This document shows, in pieces, positions 14,253-58,432 of a DNA stretch of 64,000 bases. This stretch comes from Metellina segmentata. Lineage: Eukaryota; Arthropoda; Arachnida; Araneae; Tetragnathidae. The DNA lies in the NCBI GenBank assembly GCA_947359465.1, contig OX375879.1:91128578-91192577 (forward strand). Reading direction: 5' to 3'. Within the stretch, counting starts at the first letter, position 1; the number at the start of each line of letters is the position of its first letter. The translations under genes and the position numbers were made by a program. Under the pieces are notes generated by a model. The model was not told the DNA's origin, did not search any database, and saw nothing but the letters and a program-made list of their open reading frames with translations.

Positions 14253-14319
14253 AATCTAGAAATAATGCGTAGCACTTCTCTAAACTTACATAACAATGGA
14301 GCAGTCGTGTCTTCATTTT

Positions 14320-15390: not shown

Positions 15391-15399
15391 GTTGAGGGA

Positions 15400-22721: not shown

Positions 22722-23871
22722 CACTGACGAGCCAAAACATTATGACCATCCCCACATTTTTCAATGAATTTCGTCTTGATGACGTGGAGGGCACGTGATT
22801 AAGTAAGAATGGTATTTAACTGCTGCTGGAGAAGGTAAGTAATCATTCTTGCACTTACTTTTGCGAGTGATCGTAATGGCCCGAAGACTCGGAACGAGTA
22901 TCACCGAAACTGCACGACTAGTAGGTTGTTCACGATCTGCCGTTGTTAATATTCATGAAAAGTGGATAAATGACGGTGACGCCACCAGTAGCCATGGTGT
23001 ATCAAAGAAAATGGACGCCGGAGACTGTCCCGCTAGGTAAAGCAAAATCGGCGCGAGACAGTGGCTCAGCTGACAGCCCAATACAATACAGGTTCAAGCG
23101 CTAGTATTTCGTAACACACAGTTCAGCGGACACTGTTGGATATGGGACTGTGCAGCAGACGTCCAACTCGTGTGCCTCTGTTGACCAAGCGTCATCGTCA
23201 ACTACGCCTACAGTGGGCCCGGGAACATCGAGATTGGACCATGGATGAGTGGAAGAGAGTTGCATGGCCAGATGAATCCCGATTTCTCATTTATCACGTC
23301 GATGGTTGTGTCAGGGTACGCCCTCTGCCAGGCAAACAGTTGCTCTCCTCTTGTATAGCAGGTCATAGACAAGCTGGTGGTGACGGTATTATGCTTTGGG
23401 GGAAGTTCTCATGGGCGACTCTGGGACCCGTAGTTGTGGTAGAACAGACTATGAACGCTGATAACTATCTGAACATCATTGGGGGCCATTACATGGCGTC
23501 TGTCTTCCCAACTGGAAATGGAATTTTCCAGCAGTACATCACCCCATGTCACAAGGCTCGAATTGTGTTGGAATGGTTCGAGGAGCATACTGATGAATTC
23601 CACTTAATGTCCTGGCCACCCAAATAGCCGGATCTTCATCCGATAGAGCACATTTGGGGTGTCATGGAGCGGCAGCTCAGAGCACAAACACCACCATGTC
23701 CGAATATCTCGACTTTGCGTGACCGCTGTTTAGACATTTGGTATAACCTGTCTCCAGTCATGTACCAAGAACTTGTGGCATCTATGCTCAGGCGAGTTGC
23801 AGCTGTTTTGCAGGCCAAAGGAGGCGCAACGCGTTATTAAGTAGGTGTCATAATGTTTTGGCTCTTCAGTG
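22722..23871 (+). mobile_element. Tc1-family transposon
   Basis: Terminal repeats CACTGACGAGCCAAAACATT on the left and, in reverse complement, CACTGAAGAGCCAAAACATT on the right. TA occurs on both sides (22720-22721 and 23872-23873). Its 1,150-bp length is usual for Tc1-like elements. The single gene is a decayed transposase. Confidence 0.9.
22849..23840 (+). pseudogene. Tc1-like transposase (DD34E type), inactivated
   Basis: Recognisable order: helix-turn-helix DNA-binding region (GTSITETARLVGCSRSAV, 22849-23040), the RRPTRVPLL linker, WAREHRDWT, then the catalytic core. The first catalytic Asp is in PDESRF. The usual second-Asp motif QQDNAPCH is changed to QQYITPCH, so that Asp is missing. 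The third acidic motif PDLHPIEHIWG retains its Glu but is preceded by an in-frame TAG at 23625-23627. The start region also contains frame breaks around 23040-23136. The C-terminal tail ends GGATRY, as in many Tc1 relatives. Transposase would bind the terminal repeats and cut and paste the element into TA sites. This copy cannot. Confidence 0.9.
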
Positions 23872-36057: not shown

Positions 36058-37396
36058 TGTACAAAGGACGTTCCATAAAAACTCAGAGTAAAATCATAAA
36101 AAATCAAGAAATATATTTACAGAAAAAAATACATCATACTTTTTCAAAATACCTTCCATCGGATGATATGCAACGGTCCCATCGTTCAACCCACTTTTTA
36201 AAACAAGTAGAGGAGCCTTTTTCTGGAAGCTGCTTCAAAGAACCCTGCATTGCTGAAATAACTTCAGAATCTGTATTAATTTTTTTAACACGGAGCTTCT
36301 CCTTCAACGTCGGAAGCAGACAGAAATCGCATGGTGCGAGACTGGACTGTAAGGGGGATGTGGCATGATTTTAATATTGCATTTACTAAGATATTGCTGA
36401 ACACAGAAGTAGCGACATGCCAGCGAGCATTATCGTAATGTAATGTCCAATTCCCTAACAGTTCATGTCGCTTTCTCGATATGTGCTGTCGCAAAATTTT
36501 CAAAACTGAAATATAATATTCACCATCCACAGTAGTTTTTGGAGGCACAGCATGCTGATAGATTACACCTTTATGATCAAAGAAAATAATCATCATGACC
36601 TTTCCAGCAGATTTGGTTTGTCGGATTTTTATCGGAGGCAGAGAATCAGTGTATTTCCATACACTTGTTACGGATTTGGTAAGGGAATCAAAATGATGCA
36701 CCCAAGTTTTATCACCTGTTATTACAGTCTTTAGAAAATTCGGATAATTTTGAAGCATCGGTTTCCATTCACAACATTGGTGAATTCTTGTTTGCATTTG
36801 TTCTTTAGTAAGGTGATGAAGATCTGGAGCAAACATGGCGAAGCTGTAAATTGTTGCGTAGAATGCGAAAGATCGGCGTTTTCGAAATGTTAGTTGATGC
36901 CGCTATCTCCTCACATGTCATTCGCCGATTTTCTTGCAAGATTGCCCACACAGTGTTAACATTTCGATCATTCACTACACTTTCTGGTCGGCCAGGCTTA
37001 GGAGTCAGTTGTGCAGACAAACGTCCTTTTTGTAATCCTCATGCCATCTAAAAATCGTAGACTCACCCAAATATTTGCCTTTGTAAGCTTCTTTCATTGC
37101 TTCATTAACTAAACTGTTTCTGGAGCTGTTTTGCCAAAACGATAGCAAAATTTTATGGCAGAACTCATTTCGTTTTTTAACTTTAAATCACTCACCTCCA
37201 TTTCTGTAGGACAAAGAAAAACAGTTCTTTGAACAAGCACGAAACTAGGAAAATAAAATCGTCTGCTTCGTTTAGAATCTTTATAATTGTACAATAACAG
37301 TTTGAAAAAATCGCCTGCACTTCTATATTTATAGTTTCGCGGTGTTGCCACTACGTAAAAAAATTACTCACAGTTTTTATTGCATGCCCTTTGTCC
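36058..37396 (-). mobile_element. mariner-family transposon
   Basis: The left end (TGTACAAAGGACG, then TTCCATAAAAACTCAGAGTAA) is inverted at the right (GGACAAAGGGCATGC, then AATAAAAACTGTGAGTAA). TA lies outside both ends (36056-36057, 37397-37398). Length is about 1.34 kb, with one transposase frame on the minus strand, typical for mariner. Confidence 0.88.
36134..37201 (-). pseudogene. mariner transposase (DD34D type), frameshifted
   Basis: The start at 37201 (MEVSDLK) matches the usual mariner N-terminus. Helix-turn-helix regions follow (MSSAIKFCYRFGKTA; MTCEEIAASTNISKT). Then comes the catalytic domain with the first Asp in VITGDKTWVHHFD and the second in HYDNARWH. Near 36340-36370 two small frame changes occur, and the second removes one base of the GAT codon for the third catalytic Asp. 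The downstream frame then continues as LAPCDF, LLPTLKEKL, and WVERWDRCISSDGRYFE to a stop at 36134-36136. In-frame stops also occur near 37000. The restored length is close to the usual ~345 residues. This copy is inactive. Confidence 0.88.
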
Positions 37397-41984: not shown

Positions 41985-42133
41985 AGGTAATTTTAGTTAA
42001 CGTCACACTAGATCAACACAACGGGCTATTGACGACGGTCCGGGATCAGTCTCTTAAGGGAAAGATCCGAGAACAACACCTCGTAATTTTGAACCACGGT
42101 CAGATGACGAAGCAACGCCTGAGCTGGCACCCC
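41985..42133 (-). repeat. SINE copy interrupted by the Maverick-like element, tail-side half
   Basis: Minus-oriented SINE tail and body (AACGTCACACTAGATCAACA, GACGACGGTCCGGGATC, GAAAGATCCGAGAACAACAC, GAGCTGGCACCCC) stop abruptly at the element's left end. The rest of the same SINE resumes at 57599 with CACCCCACTCTCCAAACTTC, in register with intact copies. Confidence 0.85.
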
Positions 42134-42165
42134 AGTAGTAAGCAGAGGTACTGGTGAGACGAAAG

Positions 42166-43074
42166 TGACGTCATCAAAAGGGGGCGTGGCATCGTGACGT
42201 CACAACGTGACGTCATCATAACCGGAAGTGACGTATTGATTGTTGAGTTGAGGAGTATGGGTCCTGCTGCTGAACAAAAACATTAGGGTCGAGTGGAGTT
42301 GAGATGTTGGTTTTGGTTTCAGGTTTTTTTATAGTTTATCTATTGTGGAATGGCAACAGGCGGTGCTGTTAGTTTCGGTTTCAGTTTGGGACTTGAGATT
42401 TTTCTGAAATTTTGATGTGACGTGTGGACTTGAGTTGAGGTGTAGGAGAACTGCTGCTAAATAAAAACATGAGGGTCGAGTGGAGTTGAGTTGTTTTAAT
42501 TTATTTTTGAGTTTATCTGCTGTTGATTGGCAACAGGTGGTGTGTTTACGATAGGAACGGTTTGTTTACATTTTTGGACTTGCGATTTTTCTCAGAGATT
42601 TCACTGTGACGTCATACAGAGTTAAGTTGGGTTGTCAGATTCCTGCTTCTACAACCTTTAAATAATTTCTATTTCTAGAAATGGAGTTGAGTTGTTTTAA
42701 TTTCAATTTTATGAATTCCATGGAAGCTTTGATACGGATGAGTGGCAACAACAATTGTGACGTCACTGGGACTTGAGATTTTTTTCTTAGATTTTGATGT
42801 GACGTCATGTGGAGTAAAGTTGAGATGTAGGATTCCTACTTCTATTACTTTCAATAATTTCTATTTTCCAGGAATGGAGTTGTGTTTTTTTTGTATGAAT
42901 ATGGAAGTTTCTTTACGGATGAGTGGCAATAGGTTAGTTTTATTTAATTGGGAATGGTCATTCTGTGACGTCAGATTACTTGTTAGAACATGTAGGTACC
43001 TAATCACAGCGATTTGTCTACGAACGTAAGCGCGGAGGAATACAAGTCGAGGAGTGACGTTGTGAATGACGTCA
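42166..43074. promoter_or_regulatory. Cluster of eight TGACGTCA (CRE/ATF) palindromes, left end
   Basis: Exact TGACGTCA octamers lie at 42166, 42195, 42208, 42607, 42758, 42800, 42966 and 43067. Half-site variants occur near 42229 (TGACGTAT), 42418 (TGACGTGT) and 43054 (TGACGTTG). The block ends just upstream of the ALKBH2-like frame. TGACGTCA is the consensus for CREB/ATF bZIP factors. Function as enhancer or promoter is inferred. A short frame at 42742-43029 in this block looks spurious. Confidence 0.75.
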
Positions 43075-43368
43075 CAAGAGAATTACACATGACTAAGAAT
43101 TATGTTTTTGCACGTGTAGGTTAAAGAGAAGGAACGGACGTATACAAGGAGTCATCGATAAAAGTGATTCATAAGAAAATTAAAGATTAGCTTAAACTAC
43201 TGAAGTACACGTGTTGTGGTATCTGAAAATGTTAGGGACCAAACAAAAGAAAGTGATTATACTATTTGATAACTAAGAGGCTTTTAAAAGCATAATTGAA
43301 CTTGTTTCTTGGGTCTTTGAATAACTGCTTCTCTGGATTTTTGCCCTTCTACTGTTTTTAGATATATC

Positions 43369-43993
43369 ATGAATTCTAGTGATATTAGACCTGCAAAGAA
43401 AATTCGAACAGACAAAGAACAGTGTTTTCAGAAATACTGTAAAGATTCTTTATGCTATGAATATGGTAAATTGTTTGCAGATTGTGTTGGTTGGTCATAT
43501 TTCCGTCGATTGGAAAACGAATTAACGTATTTAAAGAAAGTGGAAACTACTATAGAAATTTACGGTAAGAAACATACTGTGCCTCGACAACTTGTAGCAT
43601 ACGGGGACGAAGGTATATGCTATACCTTTAGTGGATCTTGTATTGCAGCCAAGCCCTGGTTTCCTTTACTGTTGGAAATAAAGGGTGAAGTGGAATGAAT
43701 AATTAATTTTGTGTTGATGAACTGTTAGAAAGATGGTAAGGATTGTATTAGGTGCACATAAAGACAACGAGAAGGACTTGGATCATAATGCACCCATAGC
43801 GTCTGTTTCATTTGGACAAAAAAGACAGTTTGTGTTTTCTAGAAAGAACTACAACTCTTTAAAAATTGTTCTGGAAAATGTAAGCTTACTTGTAATGATT
43901 TAGCCAACAAACAAATTTTGGTTACACAGCTTGCCCCGTGGAAATGCATTATGCCCTAGAATTAACTTAACGTTTCGAAAATGTATTGTATAA
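43369..43993 (+). pseudogene. ALKBH2-like DNA dioxygenase, disrupted (left arm)
   Basis: AlkB enzymes are Fe(II)/2-oxoglutarate oxygenases that remove alkyl groups from DNA bases. The first 109 codons are open and include VPRQLVAYGDEGICYTFSG and KPWFP, closely matching the ALKBH2 nucleotide-recognition region. The homology continues past the stop: INFVLMN, then the iron-binding HxD as H-K-D (codons 43757-43765), SVSFG, the distal His in HSLP (43925) and the 2OG-binding PRINLTFRK near the end. Lesions are TGA at 43696, TAG at 43726, an extra base near 43750 and TAG at 43901. About 208 codons would be full length, against 261 in human ALKBH2. All metal ligands survive, so decay is recent or the stops matter less than they appear. 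The right arm carries the same lesions. Confidence 0.85.
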
Positions 43994-45853
43994 ATTAGTG
44001 ATAATCCCCATATGTACCCCCCTGAACTGGAACGCAGTGTAAATAGGAATGTACACTAAACGATATTTGGAAAACGTTACAATTAATATTTATGCCTTTG
44101 TGAATATTATTTTTTATACTTACTTCTTATTGTTATTTTAAAGAAACTTTTATGCGTGTCTTACTACATACACTGCATTTTGGATTTTTTTTTTAAACTA
44201 AATACTAATTTAAAAAAATGTGTCTTTTACAATGCAAGATCTGAAATGAAATTTTATTTGCTATAAATATTTATGTTTTTTTAATTTAGATGCTTTCACT
44301 TAAACACTAATTATAAATTAGATGCTATAGCACATATTTTATTGCAGAATTTATTTTTAAATAACGTACCCTTAAATAAAAGTACAAAAATCTTTTTTTC
44401 TTTTATTTGAAAACTTTGCAAGACCCATACTATGAACATGTTTCCTTGTAAATTTTTTTTAATTGAACCAAAGAAAACTCACCCATATACCACAGAAGTA
44501 CAACACGGGACTTACAGAAGTAAGTTGATTAAACAAAGAAACAGTGGAACAAAGTTAATTAAACTTACAAAGTTGGATGACTTTAACAAATGAGTAGAAA
44601 CGCAAATGACTCCTTGTTCATTTGAAGAAGGTATAATTGTATTGAAATCAAACCATATATTATTTTTTATTTATTCTTTCCTTGCCATATTATTTTTTTA
44701 TTTAAATAAATCTGTCTGAAATTTTGTGATTTAATTTTTTAGATTTACAAACTTTTTTTAATGAAATTTTCTTTTATTTATTGTAAAATCTTAAGATGCT
44801 TTTACACCAAAATTAGATACTATTACACATATTTTAATAATGATTTTGAAAAAATACGATTGAAACATATAAATTAGCTATTATCCAAATTTTAAATGCA
44901 GATTACAAAAAAATTATTTTTGATTTACAATTAAGACATTTAGCAGTTTAATTTCTTGAAGCGTGTTTTTATGTAAGAAAAAAAAATTAAGAAGAAACCT
45001 GTAAAAGTAAAATATTTTTTACCTTTAGTTGAAACTTTGCAAAACCCATACTATGAAGATGTTTACTTGTACATTTGAAGTAGTCAAAATGAATATTAAT
45101 AAACTTTTAGTCCTTGAAGTTCTAAATAAAATGTTCTTTTTTCTAATGCTCTTGCAAACCATACATTTTACTAAACATATGAACTAATTTTTATTTACTT
45201 GAAAACCTTGTGTATGTTATGTAGTTTAAATTTGCAGAGCCATATGCCAATTTTGTACAAGTATTTTACAAGATACTTTGTATAGGTGTTTTATAATTTC
45301 AGTTATACTACATTGCTACGTTATATGGATAGTAAGTGCGTTTTGTGATATTGAAAATAATGTGTACACTTCTAGGTTGCTAAACAAAATAATTATTGCA
45401 CTTTCTTGATAGTTAATGCAAATCTAAAGATTTACTCACACCACTGATAGTTTTACACATGAGTAAAATTAAATTACAACTGAAAATTTTAAATACTAAT
45501 TAATTTTTATATGAACAAATACCATTGAAATAATGTTTAAATATGAATTCTATGTATTTCTTCATACAATCTCTGCTAAAAACAAACTGTTCTAAAACAT
45601 ATTGAAAAATAATTCTAAAACATATTGAAAAATAATTCTAAAACATATTGAAAGAAGTCATACTGAAACAAAGTAAACTATATAACAGTTTTTAATTGAA
45701 AAAAAAAACAGGATTCATATATTTTACACAAAGTAATGCATTATAGCAAAAACAAAAGAACGTATTTTTTACATGCTTGCATTTTTTAAGAGACATATAT
45801 TTCCTATGAGCAAGTTATTAAATGCCGTCACCACAGCTTTTGGGCAATGCAAA
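43994..45853. other. AT-rich arm interval without a recognised gene
   Basis: Mostly A/T tracts. A short plus-strand open segment near 44462-44583 (EPKKTHPYTTEVQHGTYRSK, ending TKLDDFNK) may be a coding relic but has no start codon or known homology. A 22-bp unit ending AATAATTCTAAAACATATTG is repeated three times near 45594-45650. Mirrored at about 53879-55738. Confidence 0.45.
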
Positions 45854-46315
45854 TTATTTTTGTGATGACCACATGATAGGTTTTTGGATCTTTTTGTTGC
45901 TGCTTAGAGCACATAGTGCATCGAATTTGGGACACCCAAAGTGTTCCAAGTTCATGTTCGGAATATTCAATGCATCTAAGCGTTGCTTCTCAACACAACC
46001 ACCTTTGTAAGCTACTAGGTACTGAGAGGCACTCTTTGTCTGCTTGTACAATTCCAAAAGTTTAGAGTCTAGACTTTCTAAGGAAGACACGTTTTCCCAT
46101 GCTATGGGACATAAATGAAGTCCACACACATAATTTTCGACATATCGCACAGTTTTACGATCTTTGGCACTAAGTTTATACTTATAAGGCGATAGGTTAA
46201 AACGAATACTTGAAGCTACTTGCGATTTTATACTGATGTATCCGTATTCACGTACTAAGAAACCTTCCTTAGTCTGAAATCCATCAAAATCCATAATTGC
46301 ACAGACATTAAACAT
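45854..46315 (-). CDS. Conserved protein of unknown function, 153 aa (left arm)
   Basis: Intact frame, identical in the other arm. Landmarks: N-terminal MDFDGFQTKEGFLVREYGYI, a central GLHLCPIAW, then QYLVAYKGGCVEKQRL and a C-terminal LEHFGCPKFDALC. This arrangement (acidic D.DGF start, hydrophobic strand, central W, YKG..K...L, and GCPKFDAL) recalls a family I associate with invertebrate mobile-element and virus-like loci and that may have an RNase H-like nuclease fold. I cannot name it with confidence and the catalytic residues are not certain. It is transcribed divergently from the IAP gene, with a ~616-bp spacer between starts, so the two may share regulatory sequence. Confidence 0.7.
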   Translation of the reverse strand: MFNVCAIMDFDGFQTKEGFLVREYGYISIKSQVASSIRFNLSPYKYKLSAKDRKTVRYVENYVCGLHLCPIAWENVSSLESLDSKLLELYKQTKSASQYLVAYKGGCVEKQRLDALNIPNMNLEHFGCPKFDALCALSSNKKIQKPIMWSSQK

Positions 46316-46931
46316 GGCTATTGAAAAACGTTATCTGTTCTTGGGGAAAATAATTGTAAACTGAAGACATGAAGAACTGAACTATATAACACCATACACT
46401 TACTAATCAGTAAAGTTAATCTTATTTCAGTCCTATCTTTTGTGAGTGACAATGAACTCGTAAGTGAAGAATGTACCCAGAAAACACGTGCTTGTGATAA
46501 TGCGACGAGTGCAACTTTATGCTAGAATACAGGATTTTAACAAAAGGGGTATGCTTAAATGTGCATGTAATTTGTCCTTTTTTTTTTTTTTTTTGCTCCA
46601 TCACGTTGATGAGCTCAATACAATTCAATTCGATGACTAAACATGAGCAAGAAAAGAAATATGTAACCAAATATAATTTATATAAGAGAAACTTGTTTAC
46701 TTTCTTTAAAGTATACTCATTTCTCTTGATTATGTAGTTTTATTTTTCTAAATTTACATCAGCAAAATTGAATTATTTTTTTAGGGGAACAAATCTTTGC
46801 CTTTTGTTGAACAGAAATTAGTATCTTTGACTAGTATCAAATTTCTTAAAAATTGACGAAGATATCCTTTATGAGGGGGTTTAACTCAGTAGGTCTTATA
46901 ATTTTACAATTAAGAGTAACAGATCAGTATA
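46316..46931. promoter_or_regulatory. Divergent intergenic spacer between 153-aa and IAP genes (left arm)
   Basis: The two intact arm genes start at either end of this interval, so promoters for both must lie here or within it. An 18-bp T run lies at 46577-46594 and TATATAA-like sequence occurs near 46677-46684. Short frames inside are not supported as genes. Confidence 0.4.
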
Positions 46932-47495
46932 GTGTTTAGGAAAATGAATAACCATTATGTAAATATGAAGCCAAAATTTCCAAGCATGTCTATGCTCAAT
47001 AAACGCCCATCTACGTTTAGAGATTGGCCACGCACAAACTTTGACTTTTGGGACCTGGCCGAAAACGGATTGTTTTATACGGGTATAAAGGACAGGGTCA
47101 GGTGCTATTGGTGTGGCGAAGGGCTTGAAAATTGGCAAAGAGATGATGTAGTGAGACACGAACACATAAAGTTTTATCCAAAATGTTTGGTAGTCCATCA
47201 ACAACAAATGGTTGCTGACCCTATATCAAAAAGAACACCAACAGATGAAATTGTACAGGTGGATGAAATCAAGAATAATAGCAATGTTTTTATAAAACCC
47301 GATGTAAAACATTACCCCTCAAACAACAACAAGGACGAACGACTTTGTAAAATTTGTTTGGAATCGGAAATGGATGCTACTTTACAGCCTTGCGGTCATT
47401 TGGTGACATGCATGAGATGTGCAAAAGGTCTCTTAACCTGTCCTATGTGCCGAACCAATATTTTACATAAAATTAAAACGTACATTTGTTACTAA
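46932..47495 (+). CDS. BIR + RING inhibitor-of-apoptosis-like protein, 187 aa (left arm)
   Basis: A single BIR domain (about residues 25-90) has canonical zinc ligands C58-x2-C61-x16-H78-x6-C85 with RPSTFRDWP in front. A linker of about 50 residues follows, then a C-terminal C3HC4 RING (C139, C142, C154, H156, C160, C163, C170, C173) ending CPMCRTNI. IAP proteins bind caspases or IAP antagonists through BIR and act as ubiquitin ligases through RING; viral versions block apoptosis of infected cells. It is shorter than baculovirus or insect IAPs, which usually have two or three BIRs. The first ATG is used; M5 and M12 are alternatives. The frame is fully intact and identical in both arms, whereas the ALKBH2-like gene nearby is broken. 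This suggests selection or very recent duplication. Confidence 0.93.
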   Translation: MFRKMNNHYVNMKPKFPSMSMLNKRPSTFRDWPRTNFDFWDLAENGLFYTGIKDRVRCYWCGEGLENWQRDDVVRHEHIKFYPKCLVVHQQQMVADPISKRTPTDEIVQVDEIKNNSNVFIKPDVKHYPSNNNKDERLCKICLESEMDATLQPCGHLVTCMRCAKGLLTCPMCRTNILHKIKTYICY

Positions 47496-48363
47496 ACGTT
47501 ATCTACCCTTTGTCAATTCAAGTAGTAGATGCAATTCTAGTGACTAACTGAACATGGCGTGAAAGAATTCTATAAGAGTGATATTTTGAGTTTAATGTTA
47601 TGAAATTAACACATGTGCGGTAGCAAAAAGACTAGTAAGGAAGTTAGAAACTACTAAAAAAATTATAAGACTTTCTGTCAAGGACTTGTAGTAAAATCGT
47701 GTAGGAAAGACTTATATTTAATATATTTAGAAGGGGTATAATAACTATTTTACTTATTTGTTGTTTGTTCATTACATGCTAAACCTATTTTGGATAGAGA
47801 AATTTTAAAGTGCCTTAAAAAGGAATTACAAATTGCTTCAAGAAAGATATGTGTAAAAGTATTCTGTAATACAAGAAAGCTGGAAATAAATATTATTCAT
47901 ATTTTGAGATTTTTTCCTTTTTATTTTCTATCTGATTTTTTTCTGCATAACTTTTTTTTTATTGTTCTTAATAAACTTTATTTTGCTTTTTTCCTTTAAA
48001 AAAAACATCGTAATTTATTTTGTTACTGCTTAGCTTATTTTTTACTGCTAAACTTTTGTTTTTGTTTATTACCTAATTTTTTTTTGCCGCTTAACTTTGT
48101 TACTGTTAAACTTTGTTTTGTTGTGTTACCACTTAACTTTTTTTTTTACTGTTTTATTTTTTTAATTGTTTAACTTTTTTTTCTTATTCAAACTTTTTTT
48201 TTTTAACATTATCAAAAAAAAAAAAACTGTAATTGTTGTGTAGAATATATTTTTGACAACACTGGATTGAAGATAAAATATTTATTGAAAACATAGGAAT
48301 CGGTAAAACAGTTAATACAATTGTTATAACATATCTTACAGGTCTTTTACTTACATTTCTTTA
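47496..48363. other. T-rich inner end of left arm
   Basis: Contains AATAAA signals near 47885 and 47969 that could serve the IAP transcript. Long T tracts alternate with GTTACTGCTTAAC-like repeats (about 48020-48200). The ~58-bp length difference between arms falls in this slippage-prone stretch. The frame at 47790-47999 is not supported as a gene. Confidence 0.5.
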
Positions 48364-48364
48364 C

Positions 48365-48800
48365 ATGTACCTAATAGCTCTTAAAATGATGCGCTTTACA
48401 AACCAACCCAAAGCGTGTAATAGAATGCGATTCAACCATCAGGCGTTTTCGGAGGAAAGCTTAAATTTGCTTCCAGCCAATATGTTTCACCTTGGCGAAT
48501 ATTTATTCGTGCTAATTAACAACTTCAATGGTTCCACACATGTCCACATACGTAAATTTACTTTAGAGTTTACACAGTGTCTTGCAACCAACGAAGGAAT
48601 TTATTTCCCTGCATACGAAAACATGGTATATTCTTATGGAGAAGTTGATCAAGTTTTTCGCGTATGCAACTCCCTTCGAAGTTAAAGTTATAGAGAAGGA
48701 AGTCTGCCTTTCTAAAGTGTTTGATGCTGAAAAAACGTGTATTTCAGAAAAAAGACCATTGTTTTCATTTTTCGCCCCATTGTGTGTTTATGAATTCTGA
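48365..48800 (+). pseudogene. PC4/p15-like coactivator domain gene, one frameshift
   Basis: The first frame (48365-48580) has HLGEYLFVLINNFNG followed by VHIRKF, the beta-strand pattern of the PC4 single-stranded-DNA-binding fold. From about 48580 the match moves to another frame, QPTKEFISLHTKTWYILMEK, equivalent to the PTK.GI.L....W..L..-type second half of PC4, and runs to the stop at 48798-48800. A one-base change near 48579 explains the shift. If real, the protein would be about 145 aa with a 40-aa C-terminal tail. PC4 binds ssDNA and promotes transcription or replication. It sits in the non-duplicated centre, immediately after the left arm. Alternatively the first frame alone (106 aa) is used. 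Confidence 0.55.
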
Positions 48801-49020
48801 TCTGCATTTTAAATTGTACGAATTCTACGATAATGTGTCAGGTATATTGAAAACATCGCTTTTGACGTATTTGCTGCCATACTATGTGAAACTGGAAATC
48901 AAAAATGGTTTTCCTGATGAAAGTTACAAACTTTACTGCATTGATACTGGTAAATCTGAATGTTGGAGAGAAGTTATAGCTTCTCTCTGCAAGTGCCTAA
49001 AGGAAAATTGTGGTAAATAA
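48790..49020 (+). CDS. Small ORF of unknown function, 76 aa
   Basis: The ATG at 48790 overlaps the last 11 nt of the PC4-like frame, a compact virus-like arrangement. The product is rich in aromatic and charged residues, with a hydrophobic stretch ILKTSLLTYLLPYYVKLEI and four cysteines near the C-terminus (YCIDTGKSECW, CKCLKENC). The frame is also open upstream to 48721, so a longer start is possible. No family recognised. The hAT element inserted 52 bp after its stop. Confidence 0.45.
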   Translation: MNSDLHFKLYEFYDNVSGILKTSLLTYLLPYYVKLEIKNGFPDESYKLYCIDTGKSECWREVIASLCKCLKENCGK

Positions 49021-49080
49021 TATTACTATTCTTTTTATTGCTTAGGTTGTACGAATGAAATTGTCAATCAATCTGTACAT

Positions 49081-51190
49081 TAGGGTGGTCCAAAAAAGGC
49101 CTTTTTTTAAAAAAGAAAGATTCTTATTGGTCCTACCCTCCTATTTGGTTCCATCTATGTAAAAAATATTTATTGTGAAGTTTGAGCTCATAATTTTAAT
49201 ATTTAAGGGTAGCTCCACACCCTCAAAGTTCTATGTTTTTCTATTTTATACTATGGATGTAGAAGGAAACAAAACTCCATCTAGAAAAAACATATAATTT
49301 TAGTTTCTTGAAATTTCTAGCATTTTGTGAGTTAAAAATAATACAAGTGACATTTAAACAGCAATGGGTGTACTATGTGCTTGTGCATTCACATGCTAAA
49401 CTCTGCTTTTTGCAATCGGGATAAATTCGTCAGTGTTCTTCTATAACCAGCAACAAGAATTGAAGTTGGTCTTCACTTTGTGTTTTTTTTCATATTAAAC
49501 TCTTTTATGAGGGCTATACCCCTTTCAACAAGATCATTAACAGCTGAAATTCCTTCAATACTTTTTAGTGCTTTGTAATAATCCTCCTGATGCTCCCAGA
49601 TTTGTTGATGTACGTGAAGGAATGTATCGAGTAAACTCATTCTTTTAAATAACAAAGCTGACTGCTTTGTTACAAAGTCCTGAAATTTCATGTCCATAGC
49701 AATTTTAAGCTTAATGTCGGGACGTTTTGCAAGATTATTTTTTCCATTTACTTTTTTCATAGTCTTTATAATTTGCCTTTTAATGCAATGAGGCACTTGA
49801 TTGTCAAAAAGAGCTAAGGCGACAAGATCATCTGATAAATACCAAAGGTGATTGGCTAGTTTTTCTGATGCAACTTTTCTTATTTCTTCATCAATCTTTT
49901 TATAATGTAATAAAGATTTCATTTAATTAAAAGCATTGTATGGTGCATTTTGAGGTAAAGAAGCTGTATTCCAAGCTTTTAAAAACACATGTATAGCATA
50001 TATACGTATCTTTTGCAATCCTTTTTTCTTCTGTTGGAGTGATGGTATAAACTGGTAACTAAACATCCATATTTTAAGACAGTACAATATTTTTGAAATC
50101 CATCAAGCGTGGTGCATAGCCCTATGTGCCATAAATATCATTCCACACGAAGGGGCTTTACCAAGAAATTTTTAAATCAGTTCAAGAAATTCTCAATAAT
50201 CATCTCTTGAGTGGGAATCATACAGTAATTTTTCAGCAAGTTTAATTCTATCATTCTTTATATCAGTCACTTGGGCCCAAATGTCCTTATTATTGATTCC
50301 TGTCCTATACTTATTCTTATTAATGAACTCCCAATAGGCCTGGAATCTTTTAAAGAGAAGTACATCTGATGCAGAAGAGAATCTCATGTATTTATTAAAA
50401 ACTGCACCAATAATCAATTCCATGATGTGGTGTCGACATGCCAAATATAGTAGGATCTTGTTCATTTTTTGTTTTGTTCCAGTAAGACACTAGTGCCATT
50501 TCTTTAGCCAGTATTCACACTCGTTGTGTCAAAGCACATAGCAGACACTCTGTCAGCTAAGCAACAGTCCTGCAAAGCTGCATAAACTTCAACAGCGTGA
50601 TTTTCTCCGGTTCTTGATGCAAGTTTGGCCACTAAGTAATTGATGGACACTTTTTTCAGATACTATGACAGGAAGTCTATCGACTTTTTCTTTCCCAGTT
50701 TAGTTTTGTAACAGTTTACCATCCCAGTGTTAACTGTTAATTTAGCATTCTGTTCCTGTAATTCAGTTTTCAGCTGCTGAAACATATTAGAGCGGTGTTT
50801 CTTTCTTTCTCGGAGAATATAACTTCTGCTTAGGGTAATGTCATCCACTTCACAACCCAAACTCCTTGCCGCTTCAGCAACAACAAATACTACCTTGCGA
50901 TCTGACGTTTATATAAAAATGAAGTTTTTATTATACAATTATTTTTTGTTAATTACAATAGCAATTTTATTTGTGGTTAGTTTTTTTATTTTTGATAAAA
51001 ACACTATTGAACAATGATACTAACAATTTAATACTATTGAACAATGATGCAAACTTGATCTGCATTGAGCTACCTCATAATATTATTGAAATGTTTTCAA
51101 ATTTTGTGTGATTTATTTTTTAATGCATTGGAACAAAATAGGAGGGTAGGACCTAAAATATTTTCACCTTCAAAATTTTGGACCACCCTA
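49081..51190 (-). mobile_element. hAT transposon inserted in the palindrome centre
   Basis: Terminal repeats TAGGGTGGTCCAAAA are inverted at both ends. The 8-bp duplication CTGTACAT lies at 49073-49080 and 51191-51198. TAGGG-type ends plus an 8-bp TSD define hAT. At 2,110 bp it carries a broken transposase on the minus strand. It is clearly younger than the host element. Confidence 0.9.
49473..50860 (-). pseudogene. hAT-like transposase, multiply broken
   Basis: Read on the minus strand, protein-like pieces occur in order: 50860-50663 (LRERKKHR...KTKLGKKK, basic), 50650-50470 (VYAALQDCC..., then an acidic CFDTTSVNTG motif), 50465-50193 (LLYLACRHHIMELIIGAVF, containing a CxxH typical of hAT cores between the catalytic acidic residues), and 49922-49473 (FVTKQSALLFKRM, near the end AVNDLVERGIALIKEF). 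Stops and shifts separate the pieces. The sequence stays coding upstream of 50860 (KVVFVVAEAARSLG) to an AG that could be a splice acceptor. Catalytic Asp in CFDTT is inferred from the motif. This copy is inactive. Confidence 0.75.
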
Positions 51191-51198
51191 CTGTACAT

Positions 51199-51426
51199 GC
51201 ATGTATGAAGATGAATGTCGACGAACGCTTTTGCAAAATTTTCACCCTTGATTTATGTGCTGTTAACTGGAAAGAGTTTGCTATTCATTTTGTAAGATAG
51301 ATAGATAGATAGATAGAGATAGAGAGAGAGAGAGAGAGAGAGCAATAAATTGTTAAACTTTTATGACATTATATTAGAAGGCAACTTTTTTGAAAATTTG
51401 AATACAACAAATATTTTCAATATTGT
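51199..51426. other. Right part of palindrome centre
   Basis: Unique spacer. Includes a (GATA)n then (GA)n microsatellite at 51297-51342. Confidence 0.7.
51297..51342 (+). repeat. (GATA)n/(GA)n microsatellite
   Basis: GATAGATAGATAGATAGATAG followed by AGATAGAGAGAGAGAG. Compound and uninterrupted apart from the transition. Confidence 0.95.
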
Positions 51427-52235
51427 TAAAGAAATGTAAGTAAAAGACCTGTAAGATATGTTATAACAATTGTATTAACTGTTTTACCGATTCCTATGTT
51501 TTCAATAAATATTTTATCTTCAATCCAGTGTTGTCAAAAATATATTCTACACAACAATTACAGTTTTTTTTTTGATAATGTTAAAAAAAAAAAGTTAAGT
51601 GGTAACACAACAAAACAAAGTTTAACAGTAACAAAGTTAAGCGGCAAAAAAAAATTAGGTAATAAACAAAAACAAAAGTTTAGCAGTAAAAAATAAGCTA
51701 AGCAGTAACAAAATAAATTACGATGTTTTTTTTAAAGGAAAAAAGCAAAATAAAGTTTATTAAGAACAATAAAAAAAAAGTTATGCAGAAAAAAATCAGA
51801 TAGAAAATAAAAAGGAAAAAATCTCAAAATATGAATAATATTTATTTCCAGCTTTCTTGTATTACAGAATACTTTTACACATATCTTTCTTGAAGCAATT
51901 TGTAATTCCTTTTTAAGGCACTTTAAAATTTCTCTATCCAAAATAGGTTTAGCATGTAATGAACAAACAACAAATAAGTAAAATAGTTATTATACCCCTT
52001 CTAAATATATTAAATATAAGTCTTTCCTACACGATTTTACTACAAGTCCTTGACAGAAAGTCTTATAATTTTTTTAGTAGTTTCTAACTTCCTTACTAGT
52101 CTTTTTGCTACCGCACATGTGTTAATTTCATAACATTAAACTCAAAATATCACTCTTATAGAATTCTTTCACGCCATGTTCAGTTAGTCACTAGAATTGC
52201 ATCTACTACTTGAATTGACAAAGGGTAGATAACGT

Positions 52236-52799
52236 TTAGTAACAAATGTACGTTTTAATTTTATGTAAAATATTGGTTCGGCACATAGGACAGGTTAAGA
52301 GACCTTTTGCACATCTCATGCATGTCACCAAATGACCGCAAGGCTGTAAAGTAGCATCCATTTCCGATTCCAAACAAATTTTACAAAGTCGTTCGTCCTT
52401 GTTGTTGTTTGAGGGGTAATGTTTTACATCGGGTTTTATAAAAACATTGCTATTATTCTTGATTTCATCCACCTGTACAATTTCATCTGTTGGTGTTCTT
52501 TTTGATATAGGGTCAGCAACCATTTGTTGTTGATGGACTACCAAACATTTTGGATAAAACTTTATGTGTTCGTGTCTCACTACATCATCTCTTTGCCAAT
52601 TTTCAAGCCCTTCGCCACACCAATAGCACCTGACCCTGTCCTTTATACCCGTATAAAACAATCCGTTTTCGGCCAGGTCCCAAAAGTCAAAGTTTGTGCG
52701 TGGCCAATCTCTAAACGTAGATGGGCGTTTATTGAGCATAGACATGCTTGGAAATTTTGGCTTCATATTTACATAATGGTTATTCATTTTCCTAAACAC
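52236..52799 (-). CDS. BIR + RING inhibitor-of-apoptosis-like protein, 187 aa (right arm)
   Basis: Residue-for-residue identical to the left-arm copy: one BIR (C58, C61, H78, C85) and a C-terminal RING (C139 to C173). Transcription runs towards the palindrome centre in both arms, so the two copies converge on the unique region. Two identical genes double the dosage of a putative anti-apoptotic ubiquitin ligase. The opposite-strand frame at 52524-52835 is a shadow. Confidence 0.93.
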   Translation of the reverse strand: MFRKMNNHYVNMKPKFPSMSMLNKRPSTFRDWPRTNFDFWDLAENGLFYTGIKDRVRCYWCGEGLENWQRDDVVRHEHIKFYPKCLVVHQQQMVADPISKRTPTDEIVQVDEIKNNSNVFIKPDVKHYPSNNNKDERLCKICLESEMDATLQPCGHLVTCMRCAKGLLTCPMCRTNILHKIKTYICY

Positions 52800-53415
52800 T
52801 ATACTGATCTGTTACTCTTAATTGTAAAATTATAAGACCTACTGAGTTAAACCCCCTCATAAAGGATATCTTCGTCAATTTTTAAGAAATTTGATACTAG
52901 TCAAAGATACTAATTTCTGTTCAACAAAAGGCAAAGATTTGTTCCCCTAAAAAAATAATTCAATTTTGCTGATGTAAATTTAGAAAAATAAAACTACATA
53001 ATCAAGAGAAATGAGTATACTTTAAAGAAAGTAAACAAGTTTCTCTTATATAAATTATATTTGGTTACATATTTCTTTTCTTGCTCATGTTTAGTCATCG
53101 AATTGAATTGTATTGAGCTCATCAACGTGATGGAGCAAAAAAAAAAAAAAAAAGGACAAATTACATGCACATTTAAGCATACCCCTTTTGTTAAAATCCT
53201 GTATTCTAGCATAAAGTTGCACTCGTCGCATTATCACAAGCACGTGTTTTCTGGGTACATTCTTCACTTACGAGTTCATTGTCACTCACAAAAGATAGGA
53301 CTGAAATAAGATTAACTTTACTGATTAGTAAGTGTATGGTGTTATATAGTTCAGTTCTTCATGTCTTCAGTTTACAATTATTTTCCCCAAGAACAGATAA
53401 CGTTTTTCAATAGCC
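52800..53415. promoter_or_regulatory. Divergent spacer between IAP and 153-aa genes (right arm)
   Basis: Mirror of 46316-46931, with an A run at 53137-53154 corresponding to the left-arm T run. Confidence 0.4.
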
Positions 53416-53877
53416 ATGTTTAATGTCTGTGCAATTATGGATTTTGATGGATTTCAGACTAAGGAAGGTTTCTTAGTACGTGAATACGGATACATCAGTA
53501 TAAAATCGCAAGTAGCTTCAAGTATTCGTTTTAACCTATCGCCTTATAAGTATAAACTTAGTGCCAAAGATCGTAAAACTGTGCGATATGTCGAAAATTA
53601 TGTGTGTGGACTTCATTTATGTCCCATAGCATGGGAAAACGTGTCTTCCTTAGAAAGTCTAGACTCTAAACTTTTGGAATTGTACAAGCAGACAAAGAGT
53701 GCCTCTCAGTACCTAGTAGCTTACAAAGGTGGTTGTGTTGAGAAGCAACGCTTAGATGCATTGAATATTCCGAACATGAACTTGGAACACTTTGGGTGTC
53801 CCAAATTCGATGCACTATGTGCTCTAAGCAGCAACAAAAAGATCCAAAAACCTATCATGTGGTCATCACAAAAATAA
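53416..53877 (+). CDS. Conserved protein of unknown function, 153 aa (right arm)
   Basis: Identical to the product of 45854-46315. Transcribed outward, away from the centre. Intactness in both copies argues it was functional when the arm duplicated. Possible nuclease-like fold, not established. Confidence 0.7.
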   Translation: MFNVCAIMDFDGFQTKEGFLVREYGYISIKSQVASSIRFNLSPYKYKLSAKDRKTVRYVENYVCGLHLCPIAWENVSSLESLDSKLLELYKQTKSASQYLVAYKGGCVEKQRLDALNIPNMNLEHFGCPKFDALCALSSNKKIQKPIMWSSQK

Positions 53878-55738
53878 TTTGCATTGCCCAAAAGCTGTGG
53901 TGACGGCATTTAATAACTTGCTCATAGGAAATATATGTCTCTTAAAAAATGCAAGCATGTAAAAAATACGTTCTTTTGTTTTTGCTATAATGCATTACTT
54001 TGTGTAAAATATATGAATCCTGTTTTTTTTTTCAATTAAAAACTGTTATATAGTTTACTTTGTTTCAGTATGACTTCTTTCAATATGTTTTAGAATTATT
54101 TTTCAATATGTTTTAGAATTATTTTTCAATATGTTTTAGAACAGTTTGTTTTTAGCAGAGATTGTATGAAGAAATACATAGAATTCATATTTAAACATTA
54201 TTTCAATGGTATTTGTTCATATAAAAATTAATTAGTATTTAAAATTTTCAGTTGTAATTTAATTTTACTCATGTGTAAAACTATCAGTGGTGTGAGTAAA
54301 TCTTTAGATTTGCATTAACTATCAAGAAAGTGCAATAATTATTTTGTTTAGCAACCTAGAAGTGTACACATTATTTTCAATATCACAAAACGCACTTACT
54401 ATCCATATAACGTAGCAATGTAGTATAACTGAAATTATAAAACACCTATACAAAGTATCTTGTAAAATACTTGTACAAAATTGGCATATGGCTCTGCAAA
54501 TTTAAACTACATAACATACACAAGGTTTTCAAGTAAATAAAAATTAGTTCATATGTTTAGTAAAATGTATGGTTTGCAAGAGCATTAGAAAAAAGAACAT
54601 TTTATTTAGAACTTCAAGGACTAAAAGTTTATTAATATTCATTTTGACTACTTCAAATGTACAAGTAAACATCTTCATAGTATGGGTTTTGCAAAGTTTC
54701 AACTAAAGGTAAAAAATATTTTACTTTTACAGGTTTCTTCTTAATTTTTTTTTCTTACATAAAAACACGCTTCAAGAAATTAAACTGCTAAATGTCTTAA
54801 TTGTAAATCAAAAATAATTTTTTTGTAATCTGCATTTAAAATTTGGATAATAGCTAATTTATATGTTTCAATCGTATTTTTTCAAAATCATTATTAAAAT
54901 ATGTGTAATAGTATCTAATTTTGGTGTAAAAGCATCTTAAGATTTTACAATAAATAAAAGAAAATTTCATTAAAAAAAGTTTGTAAATCTAAAAAATTAA
55001 ATCACTAAATTTCAGACAGATTTATTTAAATAAAAAAATAATATGGCAAGGAAAGAATAAATAAAAAATAATATATGGTTTGATTTCAATACAATTATAC
55101 CTTCTTCAAATGAACAAGGAGTCATTTGCGTTTCTACTCATTTGTTAAAGTCATCCAACTTTGTAAGTTTAATTAACTTTGTTCCACTGTTTCTTTGTTT
55201 AATCAACTTACTTCTGTAAGTCCCGTGTTGTACTTCTGTGGTATATGGGTGAGTTTTCTTTGGTTCAATTAAAAAAAATTTACAAGGAAACATGTTCATA
55301 GTATGGGTCTTGCAAAGTTTTCAAATAAAAGAAAAAAAGATTTTTGTACTTTTATTTAAGGGTACGTTATTTAAAAATAAATTCTGCAATAAAATATGTG
55401 CTATAGCATCTAATTTATAATTAGTGTTTAAGTGAAAGCATCTAAATTAAAAAAACATAAATATTTATAGCAAATAAAATTTCATTTCAGATCTTGCATT
55501 GTAAAAGACACATTTTTTTAAATTAGTATTTAGTTTAAAAAAAAAAATCCAAAATGCAGTGTATGTAGTAAGACACGCATAAAAGTTTCTTTAAAATAAC
55601 AATAAGAAGTAAGTATAAAAAATAATATTCACAAAGGCATAAATATTAATTGTAACGTTTTCCAAATATCGTTTAGTGTACATTCCTATTTACACTGCGT
55701 TCCAGTTCAGGGGGGTACATATGGGGATTATCACTAAT
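53878..55738. other. AT-rich arm interval (right)
   Basis: Mirror of 43994-45853. No recognised gene. Confidence 0.45.
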
Positions 55739-56363
55739 TTATACAATACATTTTCGAAACGTTAAGTTAATTCTAGGGCATAATGCATTTCCACGGGGCA
55801 AGCTGTGTAACCAAAATTTGTTTGTTGGCTAAATCATTACAAGTAAGCTTACATTTTCCAGAACAATTTTTAAAGAGTTGTAGTTCTTTCTAGAAAACAC
55901 AAACTGTCTTTTTTGTCCAAATGAAACAGACGCTATGGGTGCATTATGATCCAAGTCCTTCTCGTTGTCTTTATGTGCACCTAATACAATCCTTACCATC
56001 TTTCTAACAGTTCATCAACACAAAATTAATTATTCATTCCACTTCACCCTTTATTTCCAACAGTAAAGGAAACCAGGGCTTGGCTGCAATACAAGATCCA
56101 CTAAAGGTATAGCATATACCTTCGTCCCCGTATGCTACAAGTTGTCGAGGCACAGTATGTTTCTTACCGTAAATTTCTATAGTAGTTTCCACTTTCTTTA
56201 AATACGTTAATTCGTTTTCCAATCGACGGAAATATGACCAACCAACACAATCTGCAAACAATTTACCATATTCATAGCATAAAGAATCTTTACAGTATTT
56301 CTGAAAACACTGTTCTTTGTCTGTTCGAATTTTCTTTGCAGGTCTAATATCACTAGAATTCAT
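55739..56363 (-). pseudogene. ALKBH2-like DNA dioxygenase, disrupted (right arm)
   Basis: Mirror copy of 43369-43993. The same stops and one-base insertion are present at the corresponding positions, so inactivation preceded the arm duplication or was copied between arms by conversion. The open 109-codon N-terminal part is identical, and the HxD, distal His and PRINLTFRK motifs persist in the broken remainder. Confidence 0.85.
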
Positions 56364-56657
56364 GATATATCTAAAAACAGTAGAAGGGCAAAAATCCAGA
56401 GAAGCAGTTATTCAAAGACCCAAGAAACAAGTTCAATTATGCTTTTAAAAGCCTCTTAGTTATCAAATAGTATAATCACTTTCTTTTGTTTGGTCCCTAA
56501 CATTTTCAGATACCACAACACGTGTACTTCAGTAGTTTAAGCTAATCTTTAATTTTCTTATGAATCACTTTTATCGATGACTCCTTGTATACGTCCGTTC
56601 CTTCTCTTTAACCTACACGTGCAAAAACATAATTCTTAGTCATGTGTAATTCTCTTG

Positions 56658-57566
56658 TGACGTCATTCACAACGTCACTCCTCGACTTGTATTCCTCCGC
56701 GCTTACGTTCGTAGACAAATCGCTGTGATTAGGTACCTACATGTTCTAACAAGTAATCTGACGTCACAGAATGACCATTCCCAATTAAATAAAACTAACC
56801 TATTGCCACTCATCCGTAAAGAAACTTCCATATTCATACAAAAAAAACACAACTCCATTCCTGGAAAATAGAAATTATTGAAAGTAATAGAAGTAGGAAT
56901 CCTACATCTCAACTTTACTCCACATGACGTCACATCAAAATCTAAGAAAAAAATCTCAAGTCCCAGTGACGTCACAATTGTTGTTGCCACTCATCCGTAT
57001 CAAAGCTTCCATGGAATTCATAAAATTGAAATTAAAACAACTCAACTCCATTTCTAGAAATAGAAATTATTTAAAGGTTGTAGAAGCAGGAATCTGACAA
57101 CCCAACTTAACTCTGTATGACGTCACAGTGAAATCTCTGAGAAAAATCGCAAGTCCAAAAATGTAAACAAACCGTTCCTATCGTAAACACACCACCTGTT
57201 GCCAATCAACAGCAGATAAACTCAAAAATAAATTAAAACAACTCAACTCCACTCGACCCTCATGTTTTTATTTAGCAGCAGTTCTCCTACACCTCAACTC
57301 AAGTCCACACGTCACATCAAAATTTCAGAAAAATCTCAAGTCCCAAACTGAAACCGAAACTAACAGCACCGCCTGTTGCCATTCCACAATAGATAAACTA
57401 TAAAAAAACCTGAAACCAAAACCAACATCTCAACTCCACTCGACCCTAATGTTTTTGTTCAGCAGCAGGACCCATACTCCTCAACTCAACAATCAATACG
57501 TCACTTCCGGTTATGATGACGTCACGTTGTGACGTCACGATGCCACGCCCCCTTTTGATGACGTCA
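56658..57566. promoter_or_regulatory. Cluster of eight TGACGTCA palindromes, right end
   Basis: Mirror of the left-end cluster; for example 57559-57566 corresponds to 42166-42173. The motif is self-complementary, so both arms present the same sites facing the interior. Confidence 0.75.
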
Positions 57567-57598
57567 CTTCCGTCTCACCAGTACCTCTGCTTACTACT

Positions 57599-57790
57599 CA
57601 CCCCACTCTCCAAACTTCCACGCCAACCCAACGTGAGGACTTTCGGCCACGACAGATTTAAGGTGCACCAGCCGCCTCTACACCATACGCTTACAAACAA
57701 CCATGCCCGGACCCGGATTGAAACCAGGAACCTTCCGATCTAGAGGCTAACACCTTAACCACTATACCGGTTGGTCGGCTTAAATGGGTG
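57599..57790 (-). repeat. SINE copy interrupted by the Maverick-like element, head half
   Basis: Continues the SINE broken at 42133. Read on the minus strand it begins with a tRNA-like head (GGTATAGTGGTTAAGGTGTT as A-box region; GGTTTCAATCC as B box), then GTCGTGGCCGAAAGTCCTCA, GTTGGGTTGGCGTGGAAGTT and TGGAGAGTGGGGTG. This is the best preserved head in the window and shows the family is tRNA-derived. Confidence 0.85.
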
Positions 57791-58138: not shown

Positions 58139-58432
58139 TGGTAATTAGTTAACGTTGCAACTGGAGCAACATAGAGGGCTATTGACGACGTTCCGGGATC
58201 AATCCCCCAGTAGAAGATCCGAGAACACCACGGCGTAATTTCGAATCATGGTCATATGACGAGGCAACACCTGAGCCGGCATTCCACTCTCCAAACTTCC
58301 ACACCAATCCAATGTCAGGACATTCGGGGCCACGAAAGGTTTACAGTGCACTAGTCCCAGTATATACGACAGTCTTTGATTGGACCTCATTTCGAACTCG
58401 CAACTCTTCTAACCGAACTACCGCGCCCCTGC
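58139..58432 (-). repeat. SINE copy, near full length, minus
   Basis: Tail GGTAATTAGTTAACGTTGCA at the left. Body GGGATCAATCCC, GAGCCGGCATTCCACTCTCC, GGACATTCGGGGCCACGAAA. The head's B-box-like sequence GAGTTCGAAAT reads on the minus strand near 58396. Confidence 0.8.

What the first reader, a model, noticed from the sequence alone, without database searches (positions are those of the whole stretch)
42134..57598. A Maverick-type element rebuilt as a giant palindrome carrying only cargo genes
Seen: AGTAGTAAGC termini, 6-bp TSD CACCCC, total 15.5 kb, and >6-kb inverted arms with almost no differences. Known: Maverick/Polinton elements have AG..CT ends, 6-bp TSDs, 15-20 kb length and protein-primed PolB replication, but their inverted repeats are usually about 0.1-1 kb. 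Inference: as with the inverted end duplications of defective adenovirus genomes, one end may have been copied back on itself, discarding the core genes and leaving a self-complementary genome that moves with helper proteins. I know of no described palindromic, cargo-only Maverick.
Basis: partly seen in the sequence, partly recalled or inferred. Interest (0 to 1): 0.95.

Follow-up and report, generated by a model that had tools for sequence, protein, structure and literature searches.

The report
Giant palindromic Maverick satellite family
In what appears to be a spider genome, a virus-like jumping element of the Maverick kind has been turned into mirror-image copies that lost their own integration and replication genes yet have spread, apparently with the machinery of intact relatives; the copies may record how such elements replicate.

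Summary
Window 42134-57598 is a 15,465-bp insertion with a perfect 6-bp TSD, AGTAGTAAGC ends and ~6.2-kb inverted arms (98.97%, one ~60-bp indel). It belongs to a large family: a 30-mer inside the arm has 414 matches in the 1.67-Gb genome; of the 100 listed, 86 form 43 convergent pairs, none divergent (10 of the 43 were read as sequence). Sixteen fetched copies have both arms; 12 of 13 checked have exact 6-bp TSDs. The same ends flank ~17-kb elements with an open Maverick-type integrase plus chromodomain. The window element has no integrase or polymerase match; its centre holds a broken Maverick PC4-domain gene split by an unrelated 2.1-kb transposon. Its outer ~180 bp match an integrase-bearing Maverick at 97-100% while the rest matches other palindromes. 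The arms of a copy share private mutations, so they are largely homogenised. Turn-around points differ between lineages. Best reading: helper-dependent snap-back Maverick satellites. Maverick descent and mobility as palindromes are well supported; PolB in an element with exactly these ends was not seen, and copy-back origin is not proven against central deletion of one ancestral palindrome. I found no published description.

The parts
42134..57598 (.). whole palindromic non-autonomous element (15,465 bp)
   Evidence: contiguous empty-site paralogue at 58214-58327
42128..42133 (.). target-site duplication CACCCC, left copy
57599..57604 (.). target-site duplication CACCCC, right copy
42134..48363 (+). 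left arm (6230 bp)
51427..57598 (-). right arm, inverted copy of the left arm (6172 bp, lacks ~60 bp near the centre)
42134..42313 (+). helper-type end patch, outer ~180 bp: 97-100% to the integrase-bearing Maverick C4:121086799, 82-90% to three other palindromes compared
57419..57598 (-). mirror copy of the helper-type end patch
   Evidence: inverted-repeat coordinates; end alignment (outer 130 bp)
43321..43900 (+). AlkB-like (ALKBH2-type) gene fragment in two reading frames, 43321-43698 and 43721-43900
   Evidence: PDB sequence match to ALKBH2, E 1.6e-14, for the first piece; second piece recognised by eye
55832..56411 (-). mirror copy of the AlkB-like fragment
   Evidence: for 56034-56411; the remainder by symmetry
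45854..46330 (-). 158-aa ORF, tentative DEDD/RNase H-fold exonuclease-like
   Evidence: relatives; weak fold match to T4 DexA, E 0.014, model pLDDT 66
53401..53877 (+). mirror copy of the 158-aa ORF
46920..47495 (+). BIR + RING protein (inhibitor-of-apoptosis type), open frame of 191 codons
   Evidence: Pfam BIR 2.8e-16, RING 4.6e-13; PDB matches
52236..52811 (-). mirror copy of the BIR-RING gene
48458..49080 (+). broken Maverick PC4-domain gene, first part (matches residues 72-284 of the protein in L044, in more than one frame)
   Evidence: PC4 domain of the relative's protein, E 4.5e-9
51196..51436 (+). broken Maverick PC4-domain gene, last part (residues 284-350)
49081..51193 (.). nested unrelated ~2.1-kb transposon that splits the PC4 gene; carries a broken minus-strand gene (49473-50908)
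   Evidence: 97 matches listed; 910 candidates in the first look, 40 scored; ORFs

Best explanation
A helper-dependent satellite of Maverick/Polinton elements whose genome is a self-complementary head-to-head dimer of one side of a Maverick-derived block (end - AlkB-like - 158-aa ORF - BIR-RING - PC4-gene relic). Shown: Maverick-type ends and TSDs, no integrase match in the element, spread as a palindrome to several loci, ends matching integrase-bearing Mavericks, arms largely homogenised within a copy. Inferred: it is copied extrachromosomally by a Maverick PolB acting in trans and integrated by a Maverick integrase that sees two identical ends. A displaced single strand would fold into one long hairpin; repair on that hairpin would keep the arms alike while the loop (the centre) drifts. 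Palindromes would form when the polymerase switches from its template to the nascent strand (copy-back), leaving a short unpaired loop; sizes differ because the switch occurred at different points.
For: Same ends on ~17-kb elements with an rve+chromo integrase: 16 of 35 end-paired elements hold at least one integrase match, among them 10 of the 12 type-1 elements of 16.8-22.7 kb, six of these full-length without a stop. AGTAGT end motif and 6-bp TSD as reported for vertebrate Mavericks (passages of PMC8097293). Five copies at five loci share one junction and one nested transposon, and I, K and L share another junction in both orientations, so palindromes move as palindromes. The window copy is 97-100% identical to the integrase-bearing Maverick over its outer ~180 bp, and 88-100% to three other palindromes from ~240 bp inward. 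Arms differ at 0-4 sites per ~4.4 kb within 11 of 12 copies (M: 47, of which 46 lie in one ~120-bp patch) against 45-86 substitutions between the main groups; changes private to one copy and present in both arms: F 18, H 16; frameshifts shared by both arms in H, L and M. 43 convergent pairs, 0 divergent, among the 100 listed hits. Different turn-around points, 4 of 11 within 100 bp of symmetry, permutation P 0.03-0.04.
Against: No PolB was seen inside an element with exactly these ends (0 of the 64 matches listed; 91 of 393 candidates scored). The near-symmetry of junctions is only modestly significant; A-E (6230/7181), O (3117/6230) and N (4910/6158) are quite asymmetric. Homogenisation is incomplete: L has 3-4 single-arm changes and none in both arms, and E, J and Q differ between arms in an ORF. 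A non-palindromic copy (L039, ~7 kb, ~75-bp TIR) can be read as monomer progenitor or as deletion product. Central deletions of one old palindrome would give similar junctions. No extrachromosomal form can be seen in an assembly.
Confidence: 0.72

Rival explanations
1. One ancient palindrome, many later deletions: a head-to-head dimer formed once and all other sizes are deletions across its unstable centre.
For: 21 of the 43 listed convergent pairs have almost the same spacing, 10,865-11,040 bp, which suggests one dominant palindrome lineage. G shows a later deletion inside one arm of a junction that it shares with L042. Junctions O, N and A-E are asymmetric.
Against: Four of 11 junctions lie within 100 bp of symmetry. 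Mirror pairs of integrase and of partial PolB matches point to palindromes with other content, which would need their own formation events; those pairs were not read as sequence.
Confidence: 0.3
2. Two monomers joined by recombination (inverted insertion of one copy beside or into another) rather than by replication.
For: One locus (C2:19606000-19628000) has two copies side by side.
Against: Arms of one copy share private changes that other copies lack. At the nine centres compared no match to the terminal part of the arm was listed.
Confidence: 0.08
3. Foldback-like cut-and-paste transposon of another superfamily (P/Galileo, MULE) with long TIRs.
For: Giant TIRs and mobility resemble foldback elements.
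Against: 6-bp TSD, AGTAGT ends, Maverick-type integrase on relatives with the same ends, Maverick gene relic in the centre.
Confidence: 0.02
4. Assembly artefact (false inverted duplication).
For: The arms are nearly identical and the read data were not seen.
Against: 12 of 13 copies checked have exact 6-bp TSDs outside both arms, the 13th after a 3-bp offset; arms differ by indels; an empty-site paralogue lies in the window.
Confidence: 0.02

Closest known systems
Maverick/Polinton self-synthesising transposons
   Same: 6-bp TSD, (AGT)2 end motif, ends shared with elements that encode an rve+chromo integrase and a PC4-domain protein; broken PC4-domain gene in the centre
   Different: No integrase or polymerase match of its own; arms of 6.2 kb against TIRs of 46-1447 bp in intact vertebrate Mavericks (passages of PMC8097293); palindromic, with the same side at both ends
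Foldback-type elements such as Galileo (passages of PMC4168063)
   Same: Very long inverted repeats, non-autonomous copies of varying size
   Different: Placed in the P superfamily in that paper; the second-longest TIRs in D. willistoni are 1575 bp there (the longest were not seen in the passages)
Copy-back/snap-back defective genomes of adenoviruses and other viruses (recalled; no call shows them)
   Same: Two copies of one end, loss of core genes, variable turn-around point, helper dependence
   Different: Here the products are integrated in a genome and have multiplied there
Teratorn (passages of PMC6431247)
   Same: Large virus-like mobile DNA with long inverted repeats
   Different: Herpesvirus-piggyBac fusion, 41-182 kb, 18-bp TIRs; unrelated ends

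Membership tests
Maverick/Polinton | 6-bp target-site duplication | tested here: met
   12 of 13 copies exact, one after a 3-bp offset
Maverick/Polinton | AG-start / (AGT)2 end motif | tested here: met
   AGTAGTAAGC-type ends: 85 matches, 35 pairs; motif from passages of PMC8097293
Maverick/Polinton | encodes rve integrase with chromodomain | tested here: not met
   no match by tblastn in the window element; present in relatives with the same ends
Maverick/Polinton | encodes protein-primed PolB | tested here: not met
   none of the 64 listed PF03175 matches lies in the window element or in any of the 35 end-paired elements (91 of 393 candidates scored); longest ORF of the element is 191 codons. 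PolB lies 7.8-8.3 kb from a related integrase at 4 other places
Maverick/Polinton | capsid proteins, packaging ATPase, protease | not tested
   only 5.0 kb and 2.0 kb of one relative could be fetched; two further ORFs of it gave no significant Pfam match
Maverick/Polinton | TIRs of ~0.05-1.5 kb | tested here: not met
   arms 6.2 kb; the relative C4:121086799 has a TIR of roughly 1.2 kb
Foldback/Galileo (P superfamily) | P-type transposase in full-length relatives | tested here: not met
   the relatives with these ends that were examined carry an rve integrase
Copy-back defective genome | both ends derived from the same end of the parent | tested here: met
   both arms are the AlkB-side block in the palindromes fetched
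Copy-back defective genome | formed by template switch during replication | tested here: inconclusive
   5 bp of microhomology at two junctions (read by eye), modest near-symmetry

The most novel reading that the evidence does not exclude
Giant self-complementary Maverick genomes form a stable class of helper-dependent satellites that arise repeatedly by snap-back during protein-primed replication. They pass through a single-stranded hairpin in each cycle (which homogenises the arms), take over the ends of the currently active helper, and outnumber non-palindromic derivatives of the same block.
Probability: 0.42. Interest if true: 0.87.

Novelty: new variant of a known kind. Interest (0 to 1): 0.78.

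Why it matters
[quoted passage not shown] A genomic archive of snap-back genomes, with arms homogenised copy by copy, would be indirect evidence that these elements replicate as free linear DNA with strand displacement in animals. It would also show a satellite-helper relationship inside one genome, with ends exchanged to fit the helper, and a large natural source of germline palindromes.

Tried and rejected
The minus-strand gene in the centre looked at first like the element's own transposase. One search showed that it belongs to a separate ~2.1-kb repeat inserted in the centre, so that was rejected. An apparent 13-bp junction overlap in I, K and L shrank to 5 bp of exact microhomology on inspection. 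The many arm differences of copy M turned out to be one ~120-bp patch plus one site. AlkB showed no sign of purifying selection (few changes, mostly replacements); BIR-RING gave dN/dS 0.46-0.51 against N, O, P and L040, and the 158-aa ORF 0.27-0.32 against O, P and L040, with higher or undefined values elsewhere, so selection on the cargo is not claimed. Structure of the 158-aa ORF: weak exonuclease-like match, not relied on. tRNA search in pieces of three copies: nothing. Viral contigs with the integrase: one distant match. Literature searches for palindromic Mavericks or Polintons (listings and starts of abstracts only): nothing found.
Full report
What is in the window. The stretch 42134-57598 is an insertion of 15,465 bp. 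Its two arms, element positions 1-6230 and 9294-15465, are inverted copies at 98.97% with one ~60-bp indel. A perfect CACCCC duplication flanks it. A neighbouring paralogue of the target (58214-58327) reads straight through the insertion point, which confirms the boundaries independently.

The family. The window lies in a 1.665-Gb genome held in 173 contigs. The nearest named relatives of proteins found here are from spiders: Araneus ventricosus for the nested transposon's gene, Stegodyphus, Trichonephila and others for the integrase. The species was not identified. One search listed 40 matches to the outer 1067 bp (848 candidates, 40 scored), most of them in convergent pairs. I fetched the stretches behind them. 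Sixteen copies have both arms in hand (A-O and Q, leaving out P). Of these, 14 have arms of about 4.5 kb or more; G and O have shorter TIRs (1.48 and 2.8 kb). L034-L036 hold two neighbouring copies (P); L040 and L041 show a turn-around within the piece fetched; L042 shows one but its other arm is mostly missing; L043 shows none; L039 is not palindromic. Of 13 copies whose flanks were compared (N, O, P and Q left out), 12 have identical 6-bp TSDs at both sides and copy I does after a 3-bp offset.

How many. A 30-mer from the AlkB-like ORF, with up to 3 mismatches, has 414 matches genome-wide (202 forward, 212 reverse; 0 for the reversed control). The tool listed only the first 100, all without mismatch and on contigs C1-C5. 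Of these, 86 form 43 convergent pairs less than 25 kb apart, none are divergent, one neighbouring pair is on the same strand, and 14 hits are unpaired; a neighbour within 25 kb is expected for 0.6% of sites. Ten of the 43 pairs are copies that I fetched and read (E, F, I, K, L, M, N, Q, one of P, and L040 in part). The rest are palindromes by coordinates only. If the listed part is typical there may be some 180 palindromes; that number is inference. Spacings cluster at 10,865-11,040 bp (21 of 43), so one lineage seems to dominate.

Why Maverick. The end pattern has 85 matches and 0 in the control. By my rule (a + end followed by a - end within 45 kb) they make 35 paired elements, two of them doubtful at 36 and 43 kb; 16 of the 35 contain an integrase match. 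One, C4:121086799-121104116 (17.3 kb, TSD GATAGG, TIR roughly 1.2 kb), has a PC4-domain ORF (E 4.5e-9) and an integrase ORF with rve (1.4e-9) and chromodomain (7.2e-7). One search lists 118 matches to that integrase, about 100 of them without an internal stop, from 5509 candidates of which 114 were scored. For intact vertebrate Mavericks the end motif (AGT)2, 6-bp TSDs and TIRs of 46-1447 bp are reported (passages of PMC8097293). The centre of the window element encodes a broken relative of that PC4-domain protein, residues 72-350, interrupted at residue 284 by a 2.1-kb repeat that occurs widely elsewhere. The window element has no match to that integrase. The PolB family search listed 64 matches (91 of 393 candidates scored); none lies inside any of the 35 end-paired elements, the window's included. 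At four places PolB lies 7.8-8.3 kb from a related integrase in convergent orientation, so elements with both genes exist in this genome, but not demonstrably with these exact ends.

Helper ends on a palindromic body. Over its outer ~180 bp the window element is 97-100% identical to the integrase-bearing Maverick and 82-90% to three other palindromes compared (H, F, I). From ~240 bp inward it is 88-100% identical to those palindromes and 37-82% to the Maverick. Both ends of the window copy carry the Maverick-like sequence. The simplest reading is that a palindrome acquired the ends of a helper.

Arms evolve together, though not perfectly. In a ~4.4-kb alignment of 12 copies (A-F, H-M; G, N, O, P and Q left out), arms of one copy differ at 0-4 sites in 11 copies; M shows 47, of which 46 sit in one ~120-bp patch. 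Copies of different groups differ by 45-86 substitutions; copies within A-E, and within I-M, by 1-13. Changes private to one copy and present in both arms number 18 in F and 16 in H, against 1 and 0 in a single arm. Within A-E, which share junction and nested transposon, 9 such changes are in both arms and 4 in one arm only; in I, K, L they are 7 and 5, with L contributing 4 single-arm and no both-arm changes. In the ORFs, both arms share frameshifts in H, L and M, and B and C share an in-frame deletion with a stop in both arms; J, Q and E differ between their arms. So copying between arms continued after palindromes had formed, but it is not complete.

Where the mirror lies. In coordinates of the common block the left/right turn-around points are A-E 6230/7181, F 4441/4539, H 5881/6177, I-K-L 5178/5234, P 6842/6811, Q and L041 6177/6103 with an internal deletion, G and L042 5803/6214, L040 5891/6811, O 3117/6230, M 6230/5708, N 4910/6158; M and N are simplified from complex centres and J was left out as unclear. 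Four of 11 are symmetric within 100 bp. Shuffling gives P 0.03-0.04, a uniform model 0.0004. I-K-L and F show 5 bp of microhomology, read by eye. Two junctions are shared by copies in opposite orientation (I against K and L; Q against L041), as expected if palindromes transpose.

Other palindromes. (45 matches; 413 candidates, 40 scored) lists nine near-complete mirror pairs of the PC4-gene relic, lying head to head with 238-264 bp between them; their arms were not tested. One search shows three convergent integrase pairs with equal scores; in one (C11:14330692-14343702) the two genes lie exactly 2840 bp from either end. One search shows nine convergent PolB-fragment pairs 5.8-8.3 kb apart and no divergent pair, eight of the nine with equal scores.

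Cargo. AlkB-like fragment (ALKBH2, E 1.6e-14) in two frames; BIR-RING protein; 158-aa ORF with a weak exonuclease-like fold match. Intactness varies between copies. Selection on them is not established.

Mechanism. Shown: palindromes are mobile, the window element lacks an integrase match and carries ends of integrase-bearing relatives, and arms within a copy stay alike. Inferred: replication by a Maverick PolB in trans with strand displacement, hairpin formation of the displaced strand, repair-driven homogenisation, and origin by copy-back. The main rival is one old palindrome resized by central deletions; the dominant spacing class favours it, while near-symmetric junctions and the apparent palindromes with other content favour recurrent formation.

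Novelty. Eight literature searches (listings and starts of abstracts) gave no description of palindromic Mavericks. Most subscription papers and all bioRxiv preprints lie outside that library. I file it as a Maverick-derived, non-autonomous variant, not as a Maverick proper, since the integrase and polymerase tests were not met for the element itself.

Noticed in passing
window 49081-51193: Unrelated high-copy ~2.1-kb transposon with inverted ends and a broken gene of unknown family (relatives in Araneus ventricosus) nested in the centre of all five copies A-E.
   Followed up: partly
G000 C12:55045869, C10:116790275, C7:14939226, C1:113684069, C8:95540846, C2:101566468, C7:2782235, C13:12133132, C11:78826420: Nine convergent pairs of a partial PolB match (profile positions ~7-146) 5.8-8.3 kb apart, eight of them with equal scores in both members: perhaps another palindromic Maverick lineage with polymerase fragments in the arms.
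   Followed up: partly
G000 C11:14330692-14343702: 13.0-kb end-paired element with an open integrase gene exactly 2840 bp from each end, in mirror orientation: an apparent palindrome of the integrase side.
   Followed up: partly
G000, nine loci such as C2:64054874-64056623: Mirror pairs of the PC4-gene relic, head to head with 238-264 bp between them: apparent palindromes with the axis near the start of that gene; arms not tested.
   Followed up: no
flanks of A, B, D and K: Four of 13 compared insertions lie in or beside copies of one dispersed host repeat, which may reflect target preference or mere abundance.
   Followed up: no
window 23115-23627 and 36285-36902: Two ORFs of 170 and 205 codons that look by eye like relics of Tc1/mariner-type transposases; not tested.
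   Followed up: no
L039 (C13:1346000-1355900): Non-palindromic ~7-kb copy with a third end type (AGTAGTATACGGG), ~75-bp TIRs and TSD AACGCA: either a monomer progenitor or a deletion product.
   Followed up: partly
window 42576-42929 and mirror: Tandem units of about 190 bp in the end block.
   Followed up: no
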